Below are positions 33,836-63,952 of a DNA stretch of 64,000 bases, one piece after another. The notes under the pieces are model-generated. The model searched no databases, had not been told where the DNA came from, and was given only the letters and a program-made list of their open reading frames with translations. The translations under genes and the position numbers were made by a program. Positions within the stretch are counted from its first letter, which is position 1, and each line of letters starts with the position of its first letter. This DNA comes from Streptomyces albofaciens JCM 4342. Lineage in GTDB: Bacteria > Actinomycetota > Actinomycetes > Streptomycetales > Streptomycetaceae. The stretch is taken from the NCBI RefSeq assembly GCF_008634025.1, contig NZ_PDCM01000002.1, positions 1,240,001 through 1,304,000 of the forward strand. The letters are read 5' to 3'.

Positions 33836-35059
33836 CTACCAGGCGACGGGGAGCGAGATCAGGCCACGTGCGCGCAAGGTGCGGCGATGCCGCAGTTCCG
33901 CCCGCGGCACGTCCAGCCGCAGACCGGGAAAACGGCTGATGAGAGCGGTCAGCGCGGTCTCGGTCTGCATGCGCGCCAGGGCCGCGCCGAGGCAGTGGTG
34001 GATGCCGTGCCCGAACATGAGCTGACCCGCCGCGTCGCGGCCCGGATCGAACGTCCCGGGGTCGGGGAAACGGTGCGGGTCGCGGTTGGCCGAGGCAAGG
34101 GAGAGCAGCACACTCTCGCCCGCGGGCACCCGTATGCCGCCGATTTCCACGTCCTCCAGGGGGAACCGGCGGATGGCCAGCGAGGCCGGTCCGTCGTAGC
34201 GCGCGAACTCTTCCACGGCCCCGGATAGTTCGGCTGGATTCGTACGCAACGCTATGAGGTGTTCGGGGTGATCGAGCAGGGCGAGGACAGAGTTACCAAT
34301 GAGGTGAACGGTGTTCTCGTAACCGGCGAAAAGCAGCAGGAACGCCAACGAGGTGAGCTCGTCCTCACCGAGCCGGTCGCCCGGACCGCCCTCCGCCGCC
34401 GCGCCGTCCCGCACCAGGATCAGGTCGGAGAGCAGATCGTCCCCCGGCGCGGCCCGCTTGGCCGCGATCAGCCCCGTGTAGTAGCGCATCATCGCCCCCA
34501 CGGCCTCCTTCGCCCGCTCCGGCCGGGCCGGGTCGGGCGTGATCAGCGCGTCCGTCCAGGCCCGGAAGTCCGGGCGGTCCCGTTCCGGTACGCCCAGGAG
34601 GTCGCAGATGACGATGATGGGCAGCGGACCGGCGTAACTCGCGATCAGGTCGGCCCGGCCGGCGTCCGCGACCGCGTCCAGCAGCCCGTCCGCGATCCGC
34701 CGCACGGGCTCCCGCAGCTTCTCGACCCGCGCGGGGCTGAACGCCCTGGCCACCAGGCGGCGCACCCGGGTGTGGTCCGGCGGATCCATGTTCAGCAGGT
34801 TCGCGTCCAGGGCGGGCGGCAGCGCGAACCCGCGATAGCCGCCCCGCGCGTTCCGCTTGTCCAGCGAAAGCCGCGGATCGGACAGACACCGGCGCACATC
34901 CTCGTACCGCGTCACCAGCCACGCGGGCTGTCCATCGGGCCCGGCGATGCGGTGAACGGGCCCGGCCTCCCGCAGGACCGCGTAACCGGCGTGCGGATCG
35001 TCCAGGAGTTGCGTCACGTCGATGAGGTCGTCGGGGCCGGTCTCGGCGGTGTTCTGCAT
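33836..35059 (-). CDS. Cytochrome P450
   Basis: 407 residues, bacterial class I P450. LNMDPPDHTRVRRLVARAFSP is the C-helix region. The I-helix motif reads AGYENT (245-250) where AGHETT/AGxDT is usual, so the His and one Thr differ. ExxR is E284-R287, and the heme loop FGHGIHHCLG has Cys356 as iron ligand. No ferredoxin is adjacent. ATG 35059 is 15 bases after a duplicated 15-bp element. Upstream on the same strand lie an MAB_1171c-family membrane protein and an ImmA/IrrE-like protein, a grouping seen repeatedly in Streptomyces. Substrate unknown. Confidence 0.92.
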   Translation of the reverse strand: MQNTAETGPDDLIDVTQLLDDPHAGYAVLREAGPVHRIAGPDGQPAWLVTRYEDVRRCLSDPRLSLDKRNARGGYRGFALPPALDANLLNMDPPDHTRVRRLVARAFSPARVEKLREPVRRIADGLLDAVADAGRADLIASYAGPLPIIVICDLLGVPERDRPDFRAWTDALITPDPARPERAKEAVGAMMRYYTGLIAAKRAAPGDDLLSDLILVRDGAAAEGGPGDRLGEDELTSLAFLLLFAGYENTVHLIGNSVLALLDHPEHLIALRTNPAELSGAVEEFARYDGPASLAIRRFPLEDVEIGGIRVPAGESVLLSLASANRDPHRFPDPGTFDPGRDAAGQLMFGHGIHHCLGAALARMQTETALTALISRFPGLRLDVPRAELRHRRTLRARGLISLPVAW

Positions 35060-54634: not shown

Positions 54635-55372
54635 TCAGGCGCTGTCGGTCCGGAGGTCCGCCTTCTTCCGGGGGCGGGCGACGGTGGGCTCGCCCATGAC
54701 GCGGCCCCCCGCCGCCACGTCGCCGAGCACCAGCGCGTGGGCGCCGATGAGGGCGTCGTCGCCGATGGACAGCGGGCCGAGGACGGTCGCGTTCACGCCG
54801 AGCGTGACCCGGTCGCCGACCCGGGGGTGGCGCCGGTCGCCGCTCGGCCGCAGCTTGTCCCGCCACCATCCCACCGCCCCCAGGGTCACCTGCTGGTAGA
54901 TGGTGACGTCGTCCCCCAGGACCGCGGTTTCGCCGATCACCACGCCGGTGCCGTGGTCGATGAACAGCCGGCGGCCGATCCGCGCGCCCGGGTGGATCTC
55001 GATGCCGGTCAGCACCCGCGCGCAGCTGGTCAGTACGCGGGCGGCTATCCGGTGGCGCCGGCGGTACAGGCGGTGCGCGACGCGGTGGATCCACAGCGCG
55101 GGCAGCGTGGAGTGGAACACCGCTTCCGCCCGGGAGGTGATCGAGGGGTCGCGGGCCAGCGTCGTCTCGATGTCCTCAAGCATCCGGGACAGCGGACCGC
55201 CCCCGGTGCGCCGGCCGCCGAACGGGACGGCGGCCGCTTTCGGTGCACGGCCGGGCTGTTTCCGGTCGGACTGTCTGCGGTCGGACTGTTTGCGGTCCGG
55301 CTGTTTGCGGTCCGGCTGTGTCCCTTCGGCAGGTGTCCGGTCGACGGGCCGGTCGGGCTGCGACTGAAGCAT
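54635..55372 (-). CDS. CysE-like serine O-acetyltransferase
   Basis: 245 residues. A roughly 40-residue N-terminal extension made of 5-residue repeats (PDRKQ/SDRRQ) is followed by a compact left-handed beta-helix acyltransferase: LPALWIHRVAHRLYRR, IEIHPGARIGRRLFIDHGTGVVIGETAVLGDDVTIYQQVTLG (His general base in DHGTG), VGDRVTLGVNATVLGP and IGDDALIGAHALVLGDV hexapeptides. Like EpsC-type enzymes it would acetylate serine with acetyl-CoA to O-acetylserine for the next enzyme in the run. ATG 55372 starts one base after the CysK-like stop, with a GGGGAA ribosome binding site. The family is clear; the extension is unusual. Confidence 0.88.
   Translation of the reverse strand: MLQSQPDRPVDRTPAEGTQPDRKQPDRKQSDRRQSDRKQPGRAPKAAAVPFGGRRTGGGPLSRMLEDIETTLARDPSITSRAEAVFHSTLPALWIHRVAHRLYRRRHRIAARVLTSCARVLTGIEIHPGARIGRRLFIDHGTGVVIGETAVLGDDVTIYQQVTLGAVGWWRDKLRPSGDRRHPRVGDRVTLGVNATVLGPLSIGDDALIGAHALVLGDVAAGGRVMGEPTVARPRKKADLRTDSA
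55256..55315 (-). repeat. Four 15-bp tandem units in the acetyltransferase N-terminus
   Basis: Units of 15 bp (consensus CTGTTTGCGGTCCGG on the + strand) at 55256, 55271, 55286 and 55301; the last two are identical, and a diverged fifth follows. They encode DRKQP-like pentapeptides in frame, so copy number can change without a frameshift. Confidence 0.85.
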
Positions 55373-55375
55373 GGC

Positions 55376-56410
55376 TCAGTTCCCCATGCTTTCTGCCCTC
55401 TCCCAGTCCTCCTTCGACCCGGCGTCCGCGAAAACCGTGACCACGGTCTCGTCGGGGCCGAGGTTCTTCGCCTTCTCGCGCGCGATCAGCCAGCTCGCAC
55501 CGGCCGACGAACCGATCCTGGTACCGGTCTCCTTCCAGAAGTCGTACATCGCCGTGAGCGCTTCGCGGTGCGAGACCTGGGCACTCTCGAATTCCGGGAT
55601 CAGTTTCTCCACGAACGGCTGGCGCATGCCGTACGTCAATCCGCCGGCCCCGGCGAATTTCGGTTCGGCGTTGGGCGGTCCGGGCGTCCCGTAAGGCAGT
55701 TCGGCCGGTGTCACGCCGATGACGGAAAGCCCGGGGGCGATACCCCGCAGCGCCCGCGCCACACCGGCGATCATGCCGCCGCTCCCCACCGCGCCGACCA
55801 CGGCGGCGGGGCGTACACCGTCGAGCTGGCCCACGATCTCCCGGCCGGTGAAGAACTGGTGCGCGGCGACATTCGCCATGTTCCGGTGCTGGGCCAGCAG
55901 CGTCCAGCTCGGGTCCTCCGCGGCGATCTCCGAGGCCCGCTGCATGATGGCGAGCGGGAATTCGGACGCCGGCACCAGGTCGATGGCGGTTCCCCGCTCG
56001 GTCAGGTGGGTCAGCAGGCTCTGCGGTACGGAATCCGGCATCACGGCCCGTACGGGAATTCCGGTGACCGCGTTGAGCCCGGTCAGCGCGCGGGCCATGT
56101 TGCCGCCCGAGCAGTCCACGACCTTCAGCGGGCCGTCCTCGTCCGTGTGCGCGTTGATGGCGCGGCAGAGCATCGAATACGCGGGGCGGTCCTTGGCGGA
56201 GCCGGACGGGTTGCGGAATTCGTACTTGGCCATGATCTTCGCCCCGCCGGGCGGCCCGGGCACTTCGACGAGCGGGGTGCCGCCCAGGGTGGCCCGGAAT
56301 TCCCGCAGTCCCGGATACCGGGCCAGCGCGGTGGTCTCGTCGACTGCCGCCTCCAGCGGCTCGGTTACGGAGAGGTCGATCTGCGGCGGTTGTGTCGCCA
56401 TCGGGCTCAC
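55376..56410 (-). CDS. Divergent CysK-like PLP-dependent beta-replacement enzyme
   Basis: 344 residues of fold-type II PLP enzymes. The PLP lysine lies in EFRNPSGSAKDRPAY (Lys73). The phosphate-binding loop VGAVGSGGMIAGVARAL and a C-terminal serine-type PLP-ring contact (GSSAGAS) are present. The substrate loop that is TSGNTG in O-acetylserine sulfhydrylase reads CSGGNMA here, so the nucleophile or substrate probably differs. With the upstream-coupled CysE-like enzyme it should replace the acetyl (or phosphate) group of an activated serine to give a beta-substituted alanine. GTG 56410 has AAGGGA five bases before; ATG 56401 is possible. Confidence 0.85.
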   Translation of the reverse strand: MSPMATQPPQIDLSVTEPLEAAVDETTALARYPGLREFRATLGGTPLVEVPGPPGGAKIMAKYEFRNPSGSAKDRPAYSMLCRAINAHTDEDGPLKVVDCSGGNMARALTGLNAVTGIPVRAVMPDSVPQSLLTHLTERGTAIDLVPASEFPLAIMQRASEIAAEDPSWTLLAQHRNMANVAAHQFFTGREIVGQLDGVRPAAVVGAVGSGGMIAGVARALRGIAPGLSVIGVTPAELPYGTPGPPNAEPKFAGAGGLTYGMRQPFVEKLIPEFESAQVSHREALTAMYDFWKETGTRIGSSAGASWLIAREKAKNLGPDETVVTVFADAGSKEDWERAESMGN

Positions 56411-56531
56411 GATCCCTTCGCCAATTCGCGGCGTGCGCGGCCGGTTCCGCGCTGCCGTAGCACCGTGCGAGCGAACGCCCGGCCGGGTAGATGCTCTGGG
56501 AGGCCGGGGTGGGTGTCAACGGAACGCCGGT

Positions 56532-56547
56532 GTTCAAGCCGGTGAAC
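56532..56547. promoter_or_regulatory. GTTCA-N6-TGAAC palindrome, possible StrR-like site
   Basis: GTTCAAGCCGGTGAAC lies in the 226-base gap before the CysK-like gene, 122 bases upstream of its start. A further GAAC half-site lies at 56522-56525. StrR-family activators bind longer sites built from GTTC/GAAC arms, so this is a plausible but shortened target of the regulator encoded next door. Confidence 0.35.
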
Positions 56548-56636
56548 GCGTAACGGCCTTACGGAGGAAGCGTTTTGGGCCCATCGGGACGTACGCCAGG
56601 TCCGGCTCACCCGGCGGGACGGCGGGGCTTTCCCGG

Positions 56637-57806
56637 TCAGCCTTCCGATGCCCGCCCGGCCATTTCCCGGGCGAACTCCTGCCATATGCGCGCGCACTGG
56701 CCTGCTATGTCGGCCACCGCCCTCGCGCGGTGCGGCGGAACACCGTCAACGAGGGCTTGCCAATGGGTCACCGGGATTTCATGGGAGCTGAGCAGACGCA
56801 GCAACGCGCGTCCCATATCGGTGGAGCGCAGCGCGGGGTCCTGTTTCAGCGGGCGCAGCCGCTCGGGCAACGACGGGTACGGCAGGTCCGGACCGGTACG
56901 GCGGTCACCGATGTCACCACCAGGACCGTCACCACCGGGCCCACATCTTCCGGGACCGTCACCACCGGGACCACAATTTCCGGGACCGTCACCACCGGGG
57001 CCACAATTTCCGGGACCGTCAGCACCAGACCCATGGCCACCGGTACAACCGGTGGCACCGACCCCGACCCCGTCCCCACCGGAACCGGCCACCCGCCGTA
57101 CTCCGCCCCGCGGCGCCGGTACCGGGTCCTGCCCGTTTTCCAGGCGCTTGCGCACGTCCTGGGCGGTGCCCAGGGAGATCCCCGCTCGGCTGGCGATCTC
57201 CCGCAGCGGCGTGTGCGGCCGCTCGCCGATCAGCTTGCTGGCGTACAGCCGCCCTTCGGCGACGCTGGTGGGGTACGTACGGCCGTCCCGGCCCAGCCGG
57301 CCCCCGCCGTTCAGCCGAGGATCTTCCTCGGCTGAACGGCGCCGGACGGCGCCCACCGTCTTCGGGGACAGCCCCGTCACCCCGCCGACCGACCGGTCCG
57401 ACCACTGCGGATAGGCGCGCAGGATGCGGGCGGCCGCCGCCTTGCGGTCGGCCAGGGACAGCGGGAGGCCGTGACCGACGTTCGAGCGGACCGCCAGGAC
57501 GAAGCACTCCTCCTCCGTGCCCTCGATCAGCTCCACGCGGATGTGCGTACCGCCGCGCAGCAGCTCGGCCCGCACCCGGTGCGCCCCGTCGAGGACACGC
57601 ATCGTCGGGTGGTGCACCAGGATGGGCGGCAGCAGTGCGGCGTCCAGCTCGGCGAGCGTCCTGACGTGTTCCGGATCCTGTCCGCCGCTGCGCAGCGGGC
57701 AGGAGAGGTCCAGCTCGCTGATCGGCACGGTGACGGCTCGGCCTTGTCGTACGGCACCGGGTCCGGGGGCGGCCAGTGACGCCCGTAAGGCTGACTCGGC
57801 GGTCAT
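56637..57806 (-). CDS. StrR-like pathway-specific regulator (ParB/Srx-type N-domain plus HTH)
   Basis: 389 residues. The ParB-like N-terminal domain (about 20-110) has DPEHVRTLAELDAALLPPILVHHPTMRVLDGAHRVRA and ELIEGTEEECFVLAVRSNVGHGLPLSLADRKAAAARIL. The helix-turn-helix (about 135-165) is YPQWSDRSVGGVTGLSPKTVGAVRRR, with a second HTH-like stretch LREIASRAGISLGTAQDVRKRLE. This is the layout of StrR/NovG activators of antibiotic clusters. A low-complexity GPGNCGPGGD tandem tail (about 250-300) separates the DNA-binding part from a helical C-terminus. ATG 57806 was chosen for its AAGGTGA; ATG 57851 is possible. Lies between the CysK-like and asparagine synthetase genes. Confidence 0.85.
   Translation of the reverse strand: MTAESALRASLAAPGPGAVRQGRAVTVPISELDLSCPLRSGGQDPEHVRTLAELDAALLPPILVHHPTMRVLDGAHRVRAELLRGGTHIRVELIEGTEEECFVLAVRSNVGHGLPLSLADRKAAAARILRAYPQWSDRSVGGVTGLSPKTVGAVRRRSAEEDPRLNGGGRLGRDGRTYPTSVAEGRLYASKLIGERPHTPLREIASRAGISLGTAQDVRKRLENGQDPVPAPRGGVRRVAGSGGDGVGVGATGCTGGHGSGADGPGNCGPGGDGPGNCGPGGDGPGRCGPGGDGPGGDIGDRRTGPDLPYPSLPERLRPLKQDPALRSTDMGRALLRLLSSHEIPVTHWQALVDGVPPHRARAVADIAGQCARIWQEFAREMAGRASEG
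56921..57026 (-). repeat. 30-bp tandem units in the StrR-like gene
   Basis: Three in-phase 30-bp units at 56921, 56951 and 56981 and a partial fourth at 57011 (opening CGGGACCGTCACCACCGGG). They encode GPGNCGPGGD decapeptides, each with one cysteine. The units at 56951 and 56981 differ at one base. Confidence 0.85.
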
Positions 57807-57961
57807 CGCACCGCTCACCTTCCCCCCCTGGCCGGCAGTCCGTGCCCCCATGAAAGCCGGACGCGCGGGACACCGACAGGACGGACGGCGGTCAGCTGGG
57901 TCAGGTGACGGTCAGAATGGTCAGGGTCGGTGCTGACCGGATCCCCGGCCTCGCCCCGGCG

Positions 57962-59788
57962 TCAGAGCTTCAATTCGTGATTCTCCAGCCAGCTGTTGAG
58001 CTGCACCACGAATTCCAGACCGATACGGTACGGCCAGCCGTCCCCGTCCTGCCGCCGTACGCCGCCGTGGTCGATGAGGGAATGGACCGGCGCGTTGGAG
58101 TCGGCGGCCAGCTTCTCGAACTCGGCGCGCAACGCGGCATCGTAGCGAGGGTCGTGACTGATCGGATACGCGCTCTTCTTGCGCTCCACGATGCTTCGCG
58201 GAAGGAGGTCGCGGGTGGCCGCCCGCAGCAGGCTCTTCTCCTTTCCGTCGAAGAACTTCATCGGCCACGGCACGTTGAAGGTGTAATCGACGAGCCGGTG
58301 GTCGCAGAACGGCACCCGCACTTCCAGGCCGACGGCCATGCTCATCCGGTCCTTCCGGTCGAGCAGCAGGGGCACGAAACGGGTGATGCTGAGATAGCTC
58401 ACCTCCCGGATCCGCCGCTCCTCCGGGCTTTCGCCGGGCAGCACCGGTACCTCCGCCAGCGCTTCGGAATAGCGCTGGGCACGGTATCCCCCGATGTCCA
58501 GATCGGCGATCAGTCCCGGGTCGATCAGTCCGGCCAGCATGGGGACCAGGTCGTATCCGGCGGCCACCCAGGGGAACGTCTTCGCGTCGCGCAATTCGGG
58601 AGCGTGGAACCACCCGTAGCCCCCGAACAGTTCGTCGGACGCCTCGCCGGACAGGGCCACCGTCGACCGTTCGCGGATCGCCCGGAACAGCAGGTACAGC
58701 GAGGCGTAGCCGTCACCGAGCATCGCGGCGGGCGAATCGTATGCCTTCGGCACCAGGGCGCGGATGTGCGGATCGGTGAGTTCCTCCAGGGAAATCACCA
58801 GATTGGTGTGGTCGGCGGCCACGTGGCCGGCCATTTCCGCGGCGAAGGGAGCGTCCGGGGAACTGTGGACCACGTTCGCGGTGAAGTCCCGTTCGTTGTC
58901 GGCGAAGTCGACGGCGAACGAGCGGACCGGACCGGCGCCGCGGGCGGCGAGCGAACGGGCGGCGAGCGCGGTCACCACGCTGGAATCCAGCCCGCCGGAG
59001 AGCAGGGTGCACAGCGGGACGTCGGCGATGAGCTGGCGCTCGACGATGTCTTCGAGCAGTTCGCGCACCGTCCGTACGGTGGTGTCCAGGTCGTCGGTGT
59101 GTTCGCGCGCCTCAAGTGCCCAGTACCGCTGGGTACGCAGTCCCGTGCGGCCGAAGCGGAGCAGATGGCCGGGGCGCAGCTCGTACATGCCGTGGAAGAT
59201 CGCGTGCTCCGGCGTTTTCACGCAGGCCACCAGTTCGCGCAGCCCGTCCTGGTCCACGACCGGGCGCACCTCGGGGTGGGCGAGTATCGCTTTGGCCTCC
59301 GAGCCGAACAGCAGCCCGCGCTCCGTCGGGAAGTAGTACAGCGGCTTGATGCCGATGCGGTCGCGGACGAGCACCAGTTCCTCGCTGCGCGCGTCCCAGA
59401 GACCGAAGGCGAACATGCCGTTCAGCTTGTCCACCATGCCCGCACCCCATTGCAGATAGGCGTGCAGGACGACTTCGGTATCGCTTTCGGTGCGGAACCG
59501 GTGCCCGAGCGCCCGCAGCTCCGCGCGCAGCTCGCGGTAGTTGTACACCTCTCCGCTGTACGTGACGGCCGCCAGCGTGCGGCCGTCGTGCTCGGCGGTC
59601 ATCGGCTGGACACCGCCCTCGATGTCGATCACCGCAAGACGCCGGTGGCCCAGGCCCGCATGGGGGCCCGTCCAGTACCCCTGCGCGTCCGGGCCCCGAC
59701 AGGCCATCGTGTCGGCCATGCCGCGCAGCACGTCCCGCGCGCCGCGCATATCACGCTCGAAATCCACCCAGCCCGTTATGCCGCACAT
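57962..59788 (-). CDS. asnB: Asparagine synthetase (glutamine-hydrolysing, AsnB type)
   Basis: 608 residues. Cys2, the N-terminal glutaminase nucleophile once Met is removed (MCGITGWVDF), is followed by RGPDAQGYW, LGHRRLAVID, YSGEVYNYRELR and the synthetase PP-loop SGGLDSS at 264-270, then SGEASDELFGGYGWF and DRKDRMSMAVGLEVRVPF. Catalytically complete by these motifs. Sits inside a run of biosynthetic genes, so it more likely amidates a pathway carboxylate than serves general asparagine supply. The 111 bases between the StrR-like ATG and this stop carry no clear terminator. Confidence 0.93.
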   Translation of the reverse strand: MCGITGWVDFERDMRGARDVLRGMADTMACRGPDAQGYWTGPHAGLGHRRLAVIDIEGGVQPMTAEHDGRTLAAVTYSGEVYNYRELRAELRALGHRFRTESDTEVVLHAYLQWGAGMVDKLNGMFAFGLWDARSEELVLVRDRIGIKPLYYFPTERGLLFGSEAKAILAHPEVRPVVDQDGLRELVACVKTPEHAIFHGMYELRPGHLLRFGRTGLRTQRYWALEAREHTDDLDTTVRTVRELLEDIVERQLIADVPLCTLLSGGLDSSVVTALAARSLAARGAGPVRSFAVDFADNERDFTANVVHSSPDAPFAAEMAGHVAADHTNLVISLEELTDPHIRALVPKAYDSPAAMLGDGYASLYLLFRAIRERSTVALSGEASDELFGGYGWFHAPELRDAKTFPWVAAGYDLVPMLAGLIDPGLIADLDIGGYRAQRYSEALAEVPVLPGESPEERRIREVSYLSITRFVPLLLDRKDRMSMAVGLEVRVPFCDHRLVDYTFNVPWPMKFFDGKEKSLLRAATRDLLPRSIVERKKSAYPISHDPRYDAALRAEFEKLAADSNAPVHSLIDHGGVRRQDGDGWPYRIGLEFVVQLNSWLENHELKL

Positions 59789-59849
59789 GACATCCTCACT
59801 CTCTCTTCGGTTCGAGTCGGGCCCGCCGGCGTGCAGGGTTCAGCGCCGG

Positions 59850-61130
59850 TCACCAGGTGACCGGGAATTCGTGGATACCGTAGATGTCCGCGTCGTGCTT
59901 GAACGGCAGATCGCCGGTCGGTATCGCGGAGCGCAGGGTCGGTATACGCCGCAGCAGCGTCGAATAGACGATTTCCAGCTCCATCCTGGCGAGGTTCTGC
60001 CCCAGGCACTGGTGGGCCCCGAAGCCGAACGCCAGTTGGTGGCGGGCTCCGCGTCGCAGGTCCAGTGCGTCGCCGTCGGGGAACACCGAGGGGTCGCGGT
60101 TGGCCACGTTGCACAGCGCCACGAGGACATCGCCTGCTTTGATCAGGCTGCCGCCCAGCTCCACGTCCTCGGTCGCCACGCGTGTGGGAATGAACTCGGC
60201 GATGGTGAAGTACCGCAGGAGTTCTTCCACCGCGGCCGGAATCCTGCTCGGATCCGCGCGCAGGGCGTCCGCGTCCTCGGGGCGGTCGAGCAGGGCCATG
60301 GTGCCGAGCGAAATCATGTTCGCGGTGGTCTCGTGTCCGGCGACCAGCAGCAGGAAGGCCATGCGCGCCAGGTCTTCGTGCCGGTACGTCCCCGCCTCGC
60401 GCAGTTTCACGATCTGGCGCCCGAGGAGGTCGTCGGTCGGCTCGGCCTCCTTCTCGCTGATGAGGTCGCCGAGGAATGCGATGAGTTCGTCCAGCGCGCG
60501 CAGCCGTTCCGCCGCCGAAGCGCCGCGCAGCAACAGCATGTGGGACCGGGTCTGGAAGAACGCGTGGCCTTCGTAGGGCACGCCGAGCTGCTCGCAGATG
60601 ACCAGCGAGGGTACGGGGAGCGCGAGCGCGCTGACCAGGTCGGCCGGTTTGGGACCGGCCAGCATCGTGTCGATGCAGTCGTCCACGATCTGCTGGATCC
60701 GTGGCTGGAGGGCCTTCATGCGTTTCAGGGTGAACTCACCGGTCACGGCACGGCGGGCTTCGCGGTGTTCCGTCCCGTCCATGGAAATCATCGTCCGGCG
60801 GAAGTTGCCCGGCTGCCCGTCGACCTGGAACGGAAAGCCCTGCTTCTGCCGGTCGGCGCTGAAGCGGGGGTCGTTGAGCATGGTGCGGATATCGGCGTGG
60901 TTGCTCACCGCCCAGACCGGCGCCCCCGGCGCCAAGGTCGCCAGGCTGACCTTGACGGGGCGGCCGTGCTGCTGGAACGCGATGTGCTGCGCATTCGGGG
61001 AGTAGGGGCAGGCGCGGGAAATCTCCAGTTCTTGCAGGGTTTCTTGCAAGGTTCCTTGCGGGGTTTCTTGTCGGGTTTCTCGCGAGGGTTCTCGCACAGT
61101 CGCTGTCGAGGCACGTTCCGTACTGGTCAC
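59850..61130 (-). CDS. Cytochrome P450 (CYP105-like)
   Basis: 426 residues. The N-terminus is a 4-residue repeat (RETR QETP QGTL QETL QELE, residues 17-36). Then ACPYSPNAQHIAF, MISMDGTEHREARRAVTGEFT (C-helix), AGHETTANM at 264-272 (I-helix with acid and threonine), E303-R306 ExxR, and FGFGAHQCLG with Cys375 as heme ligand. The P450 is catalytically intact and looks like the Streptomyces CYP105 group by motif style. GTG 61130 has AAGGGGAAAC upstream. It lies between the MFS and asparagine synthetase genes in the same direction. No ferredoxin is in the window next to it. Confidence 0.92.
   Translation of the reverse strand: MTSTERASTATVREPSRETRQETPQGTLQETLQELEISRACPYSPNAQHIAFQQHGRPVKVSLATLAPGAPVWAVSNHADIRTMLNDPRFSADRQKQGFPFQVDGQPGNFRRTMISMDGTEHREARRAVTGEFTLKRMKALQPRIQQIVDDCIDTMLAGPKPADLVSALALPVPSLVICEQLGVPYEGHAFFQTRSHMLLLRGASAAERLRALDELIAFLGDLISEKEAEPTDDLLGRQIVKLREAGTYRHEDLARMAFLLLVAGHETTANMISLGTMALLDRPEDADALRADPSRIPAAVEELLRYFTIAEFIPTRVATEDVELGGSLIKAGDVLVALCNVANRDPSVFPDGDALDLRRGARHQLAFGFGAHQCLGQNLARMELEIVYSTLLRRIPTLRSAIPTGDLPFKHDADIYGIHEFPVTW
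61031..61090 (-). repeat. Five 12-bp tandem units in the P450 N-terminus
   Basis: Degenerate 12-bp units (consensus CTTGCAGGGTTT on the + strand) at 61031, 61043, 61055, 61067 and 61079, encoding QETL/QETP-type tetrapeptides ahead of the P450 fold. In frame with the gene and able to vary without a frameshift. Confidence 0.8.
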
Positions 61131-61203
61131 GGGTTTCCCCTTCTCGGTTACGCCGAGGGACACGGTGCTGCGGATACGGTGCTGCGGACGTGGCGGCGCG
61201 GAC

Positions 61204-62439
61204 TCAGGCCGTACCGGCCGGCTCGCCATGGCCCTGCCACGGGCGGGCGAGCGCGACCAGGGCCACCGCGGCGATGAGGACACAGCCCAGGACCACGACG
61301 GCCGTCGACATGGCGGTGGTGTTGCCCAGCACGCCGGGAAGCGGCGCGGCCGCGGCACCGAGTACGAACTGGGCGCCGCCGAGCAGACCGGAAGCCGCTC
61401 CCGGGGCGTCGCCGCCGACCGCGAGGATGATGGTGGTCGAGGCGGGCAGCAGCAGCCCGAACCCGGAGGTCAGCCCGAACAGGCAGGCCCAGGTGGTGGG
61501 GAACGTGCTGATGCCGAGGGAGAGCAGCCCCACCAGCACGACCAGGGAGACGACGGTGATGGCCACGCCGACGGCGAGCAGGCTGTTGAGACGTACGCGC
61601 CCGGCCAGCCGCCCGAAGACCGTACCGGCCGCCACGGTGCCGACGGCGTTCACGGCGAAGACGAGGCTGTAGCCGGTGGGCGACAGGCCGTAGATGTTCT
61701 GGAAGACGAAGGGCGAGCCGCTGATGTACGCGAACAGGGCGCCCAGTCCGCACCCCATGACGAGGAGGTAGCCGACCAGTTCGCGGCGGCGGAGCAAGCC
61801 GCCCATCGCGGCGAACACGGCCCGCAGGCCGCCGGTCCGGCGCCGCTCGACGGGCAGCGATTCGGGCACCCAGGACCGGACCGCCAGCAACAGCAGCAGC
61901 CCCGTCAGGGCCAGCGCCACGAACACCAGGCGCCACGAGCCGATATCGAGGATCAGGCCACCGACCACCGGCGCGAGCACCGGCGCGGTCGACCCGATCA
62001 CGCTCAGCGTGGTGAGCTGGCGCGCCGCGTGGGTGCCGGTGAACCGGTCGCTGACCACGGCCCGTCCGATGACGATCCCCGCACCGCCCGCGACGCCTTG
62101 CAGCAGCCGGGCCAGGTCGAAGACGGCGATGGTCGGTGCGACCGCGCAGACCAGGGAGAAGACGGTGAACATGCCGGATCCGGCGAGGAGCAGGCGCCGG
62201 CGCCCCATCGCGTCGCTGACCGGTCCGAGGACGATCTGGCCGATGGCGAGTCCGATGAGGCAGGCCGTCAGCGACAGTTGGACGGCCGTCTTCGAGGTGC
62301 CGTACGAGCCGACGATCTCGGGGAAGCCGGGCGCGTACATGTCGATGGCGAACGGCGAAACCGCCGAGAGCCCGCCGAGGACGATGATGAGTCGCCCCGT
62401 TCCGGTCCGGGCGGGCGCGGAATCGATGCTGACAGTCAT
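61204..62439 (-). CDS. MFS exporter, Bcr/CflA type, under an iron box
   Basis: 411 residues, about 12 helices. Seen: LIIVLGGLSAVSPFAIDMYAPGFPEI, the Bcr/CflA-type opening, SLTACLIGLAIGQIVLGPVSDAMGRRRLLLAG (motif A) and VLAPVVGGLILDIGSWRLVFVALALTG. This drug:H+ antiporter group also includes siderophore and biosynthetic-product exporters. ATG 62439 has GGAG six bases upstream. A clear iron box (62479-62497) lies 39 bases before the start, so expression should rise in low iron. Likely exports the product of the downstream genes. Confidence 0.9.
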   Translation of the reverse strand: MTVSIDSAPARTGTGRLIIVLGGLSAVSPFAIDMYAPGFPEIVGSYGTSKTAVQLSLTACLIGLAIGQIVLGPVSDAMGRRRLLLAGSGMFTVFSLVCAVAPTIAVFDLARLLQGVAGGAGIVIGRAVVSDRFTGTHAARQLTTLSVIGSTAPVLAPVVGGLILDIGSWRLVFVALALTGLLLLLAVRSWVPESLPVERRRTGGLRAVFAAMGGLLRRRELVGYLLVMGCGLGALFAYISGSPFVFQNIYGLSPTGYSLVFAVNAVGTVAAGTVFGRLAGRVRLNSLLAVGVAITVVSLVVLVGLLSLGISTFPTTWACLFGLTSGFGLLLPASTTIILAVGGDAPGAASGLLGGAQFVLGAAAAPLPGVLGNTTAMSTAVVVLGCVLIAAVALVALARPWQGHGEPAGTA

Positions 62440-62914
62440 CGGTCTCCATCCGAAGGTGCCTGAGGGATAACTGAACAGTAAGATAAGCCTAACCTTACTT
62501 CCACCCCCGGCTGCCGATCCGGCCACGCGATGGAACCGACTCGGTGCCGCCTGCCGACCCGGCCAACACCACTTCGATAGCGGCGAGTTGGGCAGCACGG
62601 AGACGGCGGCCCGTCCGGTACCGCCGCGGCGCCGAGGGCACGGCACGGCGCGGCACCGCCGAGGCCGCCGCCGGTCACCACGTACGGCACGGGCCGCTCC
62701 ACGCCCTATCTTCCGCACCGGGACATCGCCATGGTGTGGAGCGCGGAGCCCGGGAATGTGGAGCGCGGTCCCCACCCGCCGCGGAAGCCTCGACGCCTAC
62801 GCCCGGGCCGTCAGGAGCGCATGCGTGCGCCAGTCGTCAGGAACGCACTCGCCCGCCAGGCGCCAGGAATGTGCCCGCCTCGCGCGCGTGCAAGCACGTG
62901 CCCGCCCGCGCGCG
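62440..62914. other. 475-base intergenic region between AraC and MFS genes
   Basis: Contains the iron box next to the MFS gene, then about 300 bases with no credible ORF, and close to the AraC gene a set of degenerate copies of its 3' end. No terminator hairpin recognised with confidence. Confidence 0.5.
62479..62497 (-). promoter_or_regulatory. Iron box (DmdR/IdeR-type) upstream of the MFS exporter
   Basis: TAAGATAAGCCTAACCTTA matches the actinobacterial iron box TTAGGTTAGGCTAACCTAA at 14 of 19 positions by eye and is itself nearly palindromic. On the coding strand TTATCT could be a -10, so Fe-bound repressor would cover the promoter. Confidence 0.7.
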
Positions 62915-62930
62915 TCAGGAGTGCGCCCGC
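62810..62930. repeat. Degenerate copies of the AraC gene's 3' end
   Basis: A unit of about 20 bp, consensus GTCAGGARYGCRCYCGCC, occurs at 62810, 62836, near 62861 (as GCCAGGAATG) and at 62914, the last being the actual AraC stop region. Looks like decayed short duplications rather than a CRISPR. Confidence 0.6.
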
Positions 62931-63928
62931 CTGAACTGAGCGGGCGTGGTGCCCCGGTCGCGCCGGAAGGCGTAGCCGAAATTGCTCGGTGAGGCGTAGC
63001 CGACCTCGTGGCCGATCCGGGCCACCGGCCAGTCGGTCTCCACGAGCAGCGCCGCGGCCCGGTCGAGACAGCGGCGCCGGTGGTAGTCCATCACCGACGT
63101 CCCGTACAGCGCGCGGAACCCGGTGGCCAGACGCCGGACCGACATCGACGACGCGCGGGCCAGCTCGGCCAGCGTCGGCGGTGCGTGACGTGCCCGCCAC
63201 AGCAGGTCGGGGACGCGGCGCAGCGCGGCCACCTCGTGGTCGTCCAGGACGAGGGAGCCCTGGGCGTCCGCGGGCGGCGCGGTGACGGTGAGTCCGTCGA
63301 CCAGCGCCGCCATCGCCGCCACGAGCCGCGACTCCATGAACAGCAGGCGCCCCGGGGACGAACGCCGGTGCAGGAAGATCTCCTCCAGCGGTCCGGCCGC
63401 CGGGCGCAGCGCGGCGGACCGGCCCAGATACCGCTCGCGCGCGATGTGGTCCGGCCCGACGGCCGGCAGGGCGCCCGCGCCGAGACCGCCCAGGTAGGAC
63501 TCCAGCCCGGTCCAGGTCCCGGTGACCGACACGGCTCGGTACCGCTCGCCGTCGCCGTGCGCGATGATGCCGTCGGTGGCGCACCGGGGGCTCAGCGACA
63601 CCGAGTTGGCCCGCAGGTCACCGGCGCCGGTGCTGGTCTCCCTGATGTGCATGCGCCCGTCGACGCAGTGCTCCAGCTCGAAGTGGTCGCCCGGGAAGGC
63701 GAACCGGACCTGGTGGCCTCCGGCGAACGCGACGTCGTACCGGAGGACGCGGAACCCGCTGCGCAGCGAGGTCACCTCGATCGTGCCGTCGCCCACCTCG
63801 GGGCGCAGCCGGTGCCGTACGGTGCCGTCGCGGCACGCGTCGGCCTGGGCGATCGACGCGAAGTACGCCGCGTACGCCGCGTCCAGGGCGGAACCGGCCG
63901 CGCCGGCGAGCTGGTGAACCGGAGTCAC
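62915..63928 (-). CDS. AraC-family regulator with iron box
   Basis: 337 residues. The N-terminal part resembles an AraC-binding-like sensory domain (FAFPGDHFELEHCVDGRMHI). The C-terminal double HTH (about 245-335) has PPTLAELARASSMSVRRLATGFRALYGTSVMDYHRRRCLDRAAALLVETDWPVARIGHEVGYASPSNFGYAFRRDRGTTPAQFRR, by position, with the family consensus. The GTG start at 63928 lies only five bases after an iron-box-like sequence. AraC regulators beside iron boxes commonly activate siderophore genes. It overlaps nothing, but the iron box lies in the 3' end of a partial upstream frame. Confidence 0.9.
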   Translation of the reverse strand: MTPVHQLAGAAGSALDAAYAAYFASIAQADACRDGTVRHRLRPEVGDGTIEVTSLRSGFRVLRYDVAFAGGHQVRFAFPGDHFELEHCVDGRMHIRETSTGAGDLRANSVSLSPRCATDGIIAHGDGERYRAVSVTGTWTGLESYLGGLGAGALPAVGPDHIARERYLGRSAALRPAAGPLEEIFLHRRSSPGRLLFMESRLVAAMAALVDGLTVTAPPADAQGSLVLDDHEVAALRRVPDLLWRARHAPPTLAELARASSMSVRRLATGFRALYGTSVMDYHRRRCLDRAAALLVETDWPVARIGHEVGYASPSNFGYAFRRDRGTTPAQFRRAHS

Positions 63929-63933
63929 AAGAT

Positions 63934-63952
63934 CAAGGTTAGCCTTCCCTCA
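63934..63952 (-). promoter_or_regulatory. Second iron-box-like element, upstream of AraC
   Basis: On the minus strand TGAGGGAAGGCTAACCTTG matches TTAGGTTAGGCTAACCTAA at 14 of 19 positions by eye. It is close enough to the AraC start to cover a leaderless or near-leaderless promoter. Confidence 0.5.

What the first reader, a model, noticed from the sequence alone, without database searches (positions are those of the whole stretch)
54635..63928. Possible small iron-linked specialised-metabolite cluster built on a beta-substituted alanine
Seen: one leftward run of CysE-like acetyltransferase, CysK-like PLP enzyme, StrR-like activator, AsnB, P450, MFS exporter and AraC regulator, with iron boxes at 62479 and 63934. 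Known: CysE supplies activated serine to CysK-type enzymes, StrR/NovG proteins activate antibiotic clusters, and AraC plus iron boxes mark siderophore systems. Inference: O-acetylserine is converted to a beta-substituted alanine, amidated by AsnB, oxidised by the P450 and exported, with iron as a signal. No NRPS or PKS gene is visible, so it may be an NRPS-independent amino-acid-derived compound, or the core lies beyond 64 kb.
Basis: partly seen in the sequence, partly recalled or inferred. Interest (0 to 1): 0.75.

Follow-up and report, generated by a model that had tools for sequence, protein, structure and literature searches.

The report
Iron-chelator pathway split between two loci
These seven Streptomyces genes are one part of a gene set that two related bacteria keep together, most of the rest lies elsewhere in the same genome, and the two parts together are predicted to make a small compound that would bind ferrous iron, so a search for single gene clusters would likely miss the link.

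Summary
In detail: AraC, MFS, P450, AsnB, a StrR-like regulator, a CysK-like enzyme and CysE lie in one leftward run, with iron boxes at 62479 and 63934. The CysK-like enzyme is a relative of RosC (proferrorosamine pathway); with CysE and AsnB it matches the back end of the siderochelin pathway. S. albospinus, Streptomyces CT34 and Streptantibioticus ferralitis carry close CysK/CysE genes beside picolinate-starter and PKS genes. Those are absent from the window but present together on the other contig (C1:4469302-4488933): aminotransferase, ACP, AMP ligase, thioesterase, NikD-type oxidase, KS-AT-ACP and uptake genes, without CysK, CysE, AsnB or P450. The two loci share only the StrR-like gene and together cover 20 of 21 genes of the intact cluster. 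S. rimosus has the same split; genes measured are intact with low dN/dS; both loci carry the same rare CTGACC-repeat promoter element. Trees of one gene per locus place the halves in different lineages. Best reading: one Fe(II)-chelator pathway, split and probably chimeric, predicted to make an amidated, hydroxylated pyridyl-pyrroline. The product is untested.

The parts
54635..55372 (-). CysE-like serine O-acetyltransferase (SidC role: supplies O-acetylserine)
   Evidence: 88-89% to CT34/albospinus, dN/dS 0.20 vs S. rimosus
55376..56410 (-). RosC/SidD-type PLP enzyme (CysK-like), predicted to join O-acetylserine to the ketone nucleophile; Lys73 in NPSGSAKDR
   Evidence: (RosC of Erwinia 49%); dN/dS 0.12
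56637..57851 (-). StrR-like regulator, copy 1 (copy 2 is in locus 2)
   Evidence: label recalled
57890..57924 (-). Four CTGACC direct repeats upstream of StrR1; same element stands upstream of the aminotransferase gene in locus 2 and in the CT34 and S. albospinus clusters
57962..59788 (-). AsnB-type amidotransferase (SidA role: carboxylate to carboxamide)
59850..61130 (-). Cytochrome P450, predicted hydroxylase; GTG start near 61130
61204..62439 (-). Bcr/CflA-type MFS exporter
62479..62497 (.). Iron box, 4 mismatches of 19, upstream of the MFS gene
62915..63928 (-). AraC-family regulator
63934..63952 (.). Iron box, 5 mismatches of 19, upstream of AraC

Best explanation
The window holds the back part (CysE, RosC-type CysK, AsnB, P450, exporter, AraC and a StrR-like gene) of a gene set that relatives keep in one cluster, its front part lies on the other contig of the same genome, and together they are predicted to make a ferrous-iron-binding pyridyl-pyrroline carboxamide. 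Predicted steps: (1) a DegT/DnrJ-type aminotransferase and a NikD-type oxidase turn lysine into picolinate; (2) the AMP ligase loads it on an ACP; (3) the KS-AT-ACP module adds one malonyl unit (AT motif HAFH) and the thioesterase releases the beta-keto acid, which loses CO2; (4) CysE acetylates serine and the RosC-type enzyme joins the alanyl part to the ketone carbon, followed by ring closure to 2-(2-pyridyl)-1-pyrroline-5-carboxylate; (5) AsnB makes the carboxamide and the P450 adds a hydroxyl; (6) MFS proteins export it and a binding protein/ABC permease set in locus 2 takes the iron complex back. Steps 1-6 are inferred from families and from the published ros/sid models. Shown by the calls: gene content, complementarity, sharing with S. 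rimosus, low dN/dS, the common promoter element, and discordant trees. The two parts likely come from two diverged clusters that each lost what the other kept.
For: CysK-like relatives include RosC. In S. albospinus the order is AraC-MFS-P450-AsnB-[LysAT]-StrR-[ACP-ligase-TE-NikD-PKS-MFS]-CysK-CysE-[MFS-NsdA-MurB-ABC-PBP]; the window has exactly the unbracketed genes in the same order. Own-genome searches put ligase 72%, oxidase 74%, PKS 68% together at C1:4472060-4478742 as best hits. Overlap is 1 and union 20 of 21 genes; naive hypergeometric P 8.5e-4 (genes go in blocks, so the real number of events is smaller). No remnant above noise of the missing genes searched at either locus (ACP not searched). 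Of 392 Streptomyces, CysK at 90% or more is in 3 and oxidase at 72% or more in the same 3. S. rimosus WC-3904 has both loci on separate contigs. dN/dS against S. rimosus 0.12-0.26 for the seven locus-1 genes and 0.16-0.35 for the 11 locus-2 genes of the intact cluster that were measured. The CTGACC element occurs at 6 places in 9.25 Mb, two of them these promoters; reversed control 0. The oxidase matches NikD structures at E 7e-160.
Against: No product, transcript or enzyme assay. Each locus could serve its own pathway; the genome has other AsnB-like genes that locus 2 could draw on, one about 50 kb from it (C1:4418900, 70% DNA identity). The ABC ATPase of the intact cluster was found at neither locus. 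The thioesterase of locus 2 is only 48% to that of CT34. The locus-2 iron box has 6 mismatches, near noise. A third place in the genome (C2:1505833) also has four CTGACC repeats, and none of the 10 pattern hits in Streptantibioticus ferralitis could be tied to its cluster. That species has the CysK/PKS genes but no AsnB match at E 1e-120 or better. The locus-2 lineage (silvisoli, caatingaensis) shows no P450 ortholog among the 120 listed of 6322, so it may never have had the whole set. In S. rimosus only one gene on each side of locus 2 is matched; further left the order breaks. Many tree forks have support under 95, the locus-2 group 95/97.
Confidence: 0.7

Rival explanations
1. Two separate pathways. 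Locus 1 makes its own beta-substituted alaninamide from a host nucleophile, and locus 2 makes a picolinoyl-polyketide released by its thioesterase.
For: The loci are on different contigs, both have low dN/dS, and no experiment links them. Locus 2 has its own regulator, MFS and uptake genes, and other AsnB-like genes exist in the genome.
Against: Each part lacks a step that the published ros and sid pathways need; orthologs are in one cluster in S. albospinus and CT34; co-occurrence in the same 3 of 392 genomes; a shared rare promoter element.
Confidence: 0.15
2. Locus 1 and locus 2 are decaying leftovers of two clusters, with no joint product.
For: Both lack genes of the intact cluster; the ABC ATPase was found at neither.
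Against: No gene tested has an internal stop, no fragments of lost genes stand out, dN/dS is low, and both loci persist in two species. Random decay would be expected to leave more overlap or more common gaps.
Confidence: 0.1
3. One ancestral cluster was cut in two by translocation, with later faster divergence of locus 2, and not by mixing of two lineages.
For: Also gives complementary parts; one joint product as in the best explanation.
Against: Locus 2 genes are 47-74% to CT34 or S. albospinus while locus 1 genes are 74-90% to CT34 (second permease left out); the oxidase groups with silvisoli/caatingaensis, CysK with CT34/albospinus; both loci have a StrR-like gene; the genes missing from locus 1 come from three interleaved blocks, which one cut cannot give.
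Confidence: 0.15

Closest known systems
Proferrorosamine A (pyrimine) pathway, ros cluster of Erwinia rhapontici P45
   Same: RosC-type PLP enzyme, O-acetylserine, picolinate starter, one malonyl unit (predicted here from the AT motif); the known product prefers Fe(II) (as told in PMC11481915, parts 1-4 of 7 read).
   Different: The ros product keeps the carboxylate; here an AsnB and a P450 are added and the genes lie at two loci. The original ros paper (Born 2016) was seen only as a citation.
Siderochelin pathway, sid cluster of Amycolatopsis WAC04611
   Same: CysE (SidC), RosC-like (SidD), AsnB (SidA), AMP ligase, pyridine-carboxylate starter, possible DtxR-type boxes (PMC11481915).
   Different: sid uses 3-hydroxypicolinate (SidJ), a predicted methylmalonyl AT, a cupin SidB and regulators SidR1-R3; none of these was seen at either locus here. 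The paper does not contain the word P450.
Rhodochelin of Rhodococcus jostii RHA1
   Same: A siderophore whose genes lie in three independent clusters (title of Bosello 2011 in the reference list, and a passage, of PMC5550956).
   Different: NRPS siderophore; complementary loss between two versions of one cluster is not something I recall for it (paper not read).

Membership tests
Proferrorosamine/siderochelin-type pathway (ros/sid logic) | RosC/SidD-type PLP enzyme | tested here: met
   49% to RosC over 95% of the query, below CysK cut-offs; SGGNM loop shared with RosC
Proferrorosamine/siderochelin-type pathway (ros/sid logic) | O-acetylserine supply (CysE) | tested here: met
   54635-55372
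Proferrorosamine/siderochelin-type pathway (ros/sid logic) | Picolinate-type starter genes | tested here: met
   Locus 2 only: NikD match E 7e-160; DegT/DnrJ-type aminotransferase, lysine substrate not testable
Proferrorosamine/siderochelin-type pathway (ros/sid logic) | AMP ligase plus one PKS module | tested here: met
   Locus 2 only
Proferrorosamine/siderochelin-type pathway (ros/sid logic) | All core genes in one cluster | tested here: not met
   Two loci on two contigs
Siderochelin proper | AsnB-type SidA | tested here: met
   57962-59788; orthology to SidA itself not testable, its sequence was not at hand
Siderochelin proper | Methylmalonyl-specific AT | tested here: not met
   AT motif reads HAFH, the malonyl type (motif meaning recalled)
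Siderochelin proper | SidJ (3-hydroxypicolinate monooxygenase), SidB cupin, SidR1-R3 | tested here: inconclusive
   None among the genes annotated at either locus; no dedicated search of the genome
Ferrous-iron chelator | Product binds Fe(II) | not testable with these tools
   No product known

The most novel reading that the evidence does not exclude
A natural hybrid pathway: a genome that held two diverged versions of one iron-chelator cluster kept the front of one and the back of the other, on opposite chromosome arms, tied together by one operator, and so makes a new amidated, hydroxylated proferrorosamine that neither parent cluster type alone makes.
Probability: 0.45. Interest if true: 0.75.

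Novelty: new variant of a known kind. Interest (0 to 1): 0.62.

Why it matters
It would give a clear case of two gene clusters merging into one pathway by complementary loss, with gene deletion that left the promoter element in place, and it can be tested with two deletions. It also shows a blind spot: locus 1 has no PKS or NRPS gene, and locus 2 alone would look like an orphan PKS. A published antiSMASH 6.0 table for S. rimosus ATCC 10970 names no proferrorosamine or siderochelin match (PMC13098539, section 28 read); whether that strain has both loci was not tested here.

Tried and rejected
Rejected: that the core sits just past 64 kb (by eye a secreted repeat protein, a metallo-hydrolase-like protein, an FAD enzyme, a methyltransferase and regulators follow). 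The stretch beyond, L010, was fetched but only scanned for the CTGACC pattern. Rejected: plain cysteine synthesis (the CysK-like protein is far below CysK cut-offs, and reaches only 107 bits to solved cysteine synthases). Judged unlikely: that the split is an assembly error (same two loci, each with matching neighbours, in S. rimosus).

Led nowhere: the plasmid search found two 49% relatives, of which one was looked at and lies in another kind of cluster; a second centre for the genus search gave the same hit genomes; the nearest 150 relatives added only S. rimosus at E 1e-100; paper searches on split clusters gave no case of this kind among the listed titles (20 of 83 and 12 of 83). S. caatingaensis and S. 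silvisoli clusters could not be fetched; that their CysK and oxidase share a contig is inferred from equal contig lengths. In one search the MFS row was in a wrong frame and is replaced. The heme-motif pattern returned nothing because it was badly written; the motif FGFGAHQCLG is readable. Low-identity StrR and short PKS hits (41 and 63 aa in locus 1) were taken as GC-rich noise. LysAT, TE and ACP were not searched genome-wide.
Full report
What is there. The window is C2:1240001-1304000 of a 9.25 Mb Streptomyces genome in two contigs. Starts refined here: MFS 62439, P450 about 61130. The two iron boxes are the only sites with six or fewer mismatches in the window; the expected number is 0.25. 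Beyond AraC the ORFs of the next 8 kb look unrelated (by eye), so the run seems to end there.

What the CysK-like enzyme is. It is far below the cut-offs for cysteine synthases. Of 65 relatives at E 1e-40 or better, the named ones at 83-97% are Streptomyces; at 52-62% come S. caatingaensis, S. silvisoli, Amycolatopsis, Goodfellowiella, Nocardia, Actinokineospora, a Burkholderia group and unnamed metagenome proteins; RosC of Erwinia rhapontici is at 49%. RosC joins O-acetylserine to the picolinoyl-malonyl product in the published proferrorosamine model, and the siderochelin cluster uses the same logic with SidC (CysE), SidD (RosC-like) and SidA, whose deletion turns the carboxamide into the carboxylate (PMC11481915, parts 1-4 of 7 read). 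So CysE, CysK-like and AsnB look like a sid-type back end.

What relatives look like. Close CysK loci were found in S. rimosus WC-3904, S. albospinus, Streptomyces CT34 and Streptantibioticus ferralitis. In the last three the gene stands in a larger cluster. S. albospinus order: AraC, MFSc, P450, AsnB, LysAT, StrR-like, ACP, AMP ligase, TE, NikD-type oxidase, PKS, MFSa, CysK, CysE, MFSb, NsdA-like, MurB-like, ABC ATPase, two ABC permeases, binding protein: 21 genes. The ACP is a short frame between the StrR-like gene and the ligase, read in locus 2 and aligned in the others; the second permease was seen only through 32-36% matches to the first. CT34 has the same genes with the AraC-MFSc-P450-AsnB block at the other end. 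For ferralitis only the part from the StrR end to the binding protein was in the fetched stretch, and that genome has no AsnB match at E 1e-120.

The second locus. Searching the window's genome with the CT34 oxidase, ligase and PKS gave best hits of 74, 72 and 68% side by side at C1:4472060-4478742. The locus runs LysAT C1:4469302-4470564, StrR2 4470597-4471673, ACP, ligase to 4473751, TE 4473815-4474582, oxidase to 4475809, PKS 4475806-4478760, MFSa 4479359-4480846, a 174-aa ORF, MFSb 4481703-4483007, NsdA-like 4483234-4484541, MurB-like to 4485796, two ABC permeases, binding protein 4487902-4488933. Relaxed searches found no CysK, CysE, AsnB, P450, AraC, MFSc or ABC ATPase there beyond paralogous MFS hits, and no front gene at locus 1 beyond short noise (ACP not searched). 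The overlap of the two sets is one gene of 21 (StrR-like); one gene (ABC ATPase) is in neither. The naive chance of an overlap that small is 8.5e-4, but neighbouring genes are lost in blocks, so this is only a guide. Other AsnB-like genes exist in the genome, one about 50 kb from locus 2.

Is it old and kept? S. rimosus WC-3904 has both loci, on contigs C41 and C76. Around locus 1 the gene order is kept over about 28 kb, locus included, on both sides. Around locus 2 it is kept over about 23 kb, locus included, but that is only one well-supported neighbour gene per side; further left nothing matched. dN/dS between the two species: locus 1 CysE 0.20, CysK 0.12, StrR1 0.25, AsnB 0.14, P450 0.21, MFSc 0.13, AraC 0.26; locus 2 LysAT 0.16, StrR2 0.35, ligase 0.19, TE 0.29, oxidase 0.20, PKS 0.20, MFSa 0.18, MFSb 0.24, NsdA-like 0.25, MurB-like 0.19, binding protein 0.22; the extra 174-aa ORF 0.47; flanking genes 0.11-0.42. 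ACP and ABC permeases were not measured. Selection on each gene does not by itself prove a joint pathway.

Who has what. Of 392 Streptomyces genomes, 10 have a CysK match at E 1e-60, 3 of them at 92-100% and 7 at 45-50%; 8 have an oxidase match, 3 at 72-100% and 5 at 50-62%. The three close ones are the same genomes (this one, S. rimosus, S. albospinus); none of the 7 is among the 5. Only 4-5 candidates per genome were scored in those calls.

Shared control element. Upstream of LysAT in CT34 and S. albospinus stand four CTGACC repeats with 3-5 bases between. The window has them at 57890-57924, straight upstream of StrR1: the element stayed where LysAT is gone. Locus 2 has them upstream of LysAT at C1:4469191-4469224. 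The three-repeat pattern is found at 6 places in this 9.25 Mb genome (9 overlapping hits), two of them here; the reversed pattern at none. One other place (C2:1505833-1505871) also has four copies. In S. rimosus there are 10 hits at 6 places, two at the loci, control 1. In ferralitis none of the 10 hits could be tied to the cluster. What binds it is unknown. A 6-mismatch iron box stands between the ABC permease and binding protein of locus 2, identical in S. rimosus, where CT34, S. albospinus and ferralitis have 3-4-mismatch boxes.

Two lineages. In the CysK tree (18 rows) the window protein sits in a group with S. rimosus, CT34, albospinus and ferralitis (100/100) that leaves out caatingaensis and silvisoli. 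In the oxidase tree (20 rows) locus 2 sits with silvisoli, caatingaensis and a long Amycolatopsis rubida branch (95/97), while CT34, albospinus, ferralitis and NPDC048057 form their own group (100/100). Both trees are drawn with a midpoint root. S. caatingaensis and S. silvisoli appear to have CysK and oxidase on one contig each, judged from equal contig lengths. So the parts likely come from two versions of the cluster; only one gene per part was put in a tree.

Distance. dnaA is at C1:219 kb, locus 2 at 4.47 Mb of the 4.76 Mb contig. Any end-to-end join of the contigs puts the loci at least about 1.56 Mb apart; if C2 joins C1 at its origin end, as a central origin suggests, they are on opposite arms and at least 5.7 Mb apart (inference).

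Product. AT motif HAFH points to malonyl (recalled rule), the NikD match to picolinate, AsnB to the amide, the P450 to one hydroxyl at an unknown place. This would be proferrorosamine logic with siderochelin-type amidation. None of it has been seen in a culture. In the library searched, no paper holds both 'Streptomyces rimosus' and 'proferrorosamine'; of 23 papers holding any of proferrorosamine, pyrimine or siderochelin, only PMC11481915 has one in title or abstract among the 22 listed.

Noticed in passing
L085 2768-24927 (NZ_CP108465, linear plasmid of Streptomyces sp. NBC_01260): A 49% RosC-type enzyme sits with AraC, MFS, AsnB, several ATP-grasp proteins, a second cysteine-synthase-like gene, EpsC, TauD-type dioxygenase, crotonyl-CoA carboxylase/reductase and a type I PKS: another cluster with serine-derived building blocks, of unknown product to me.
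   Followed up: partly
L020 / G201: Streptantibioticus ferralitis carries the CysK-PKS genes, yet its genome gave no AsnB match at E 1e-120; it may make the carboxylate form.
   Followed up: no
Locus 2, C1:4481168-4481692: A 174-aa ORF with no match in the CT34 or S. albospinus stretches stands where CysK and CysE would be, dN/dS 0.47.
   Followed up: no
L069 and L073: An oxidase relative in G371 and a CysK relative in G244 each have one in-frame TGA in the matched stretch.
   Followed up: no
window 33839-34933: A second P450 frame, 35% to the cluster P450, lies on the minus strand elsewhere in the window.
   Followed up: no
P0195 and P0075: An Amycolatopsis P450 at 67% and a NikD-type oxidase at 70% come from contigs of the same length (123685), hinting at a P450-bearing one-piece cluster there.
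   Followed up: no
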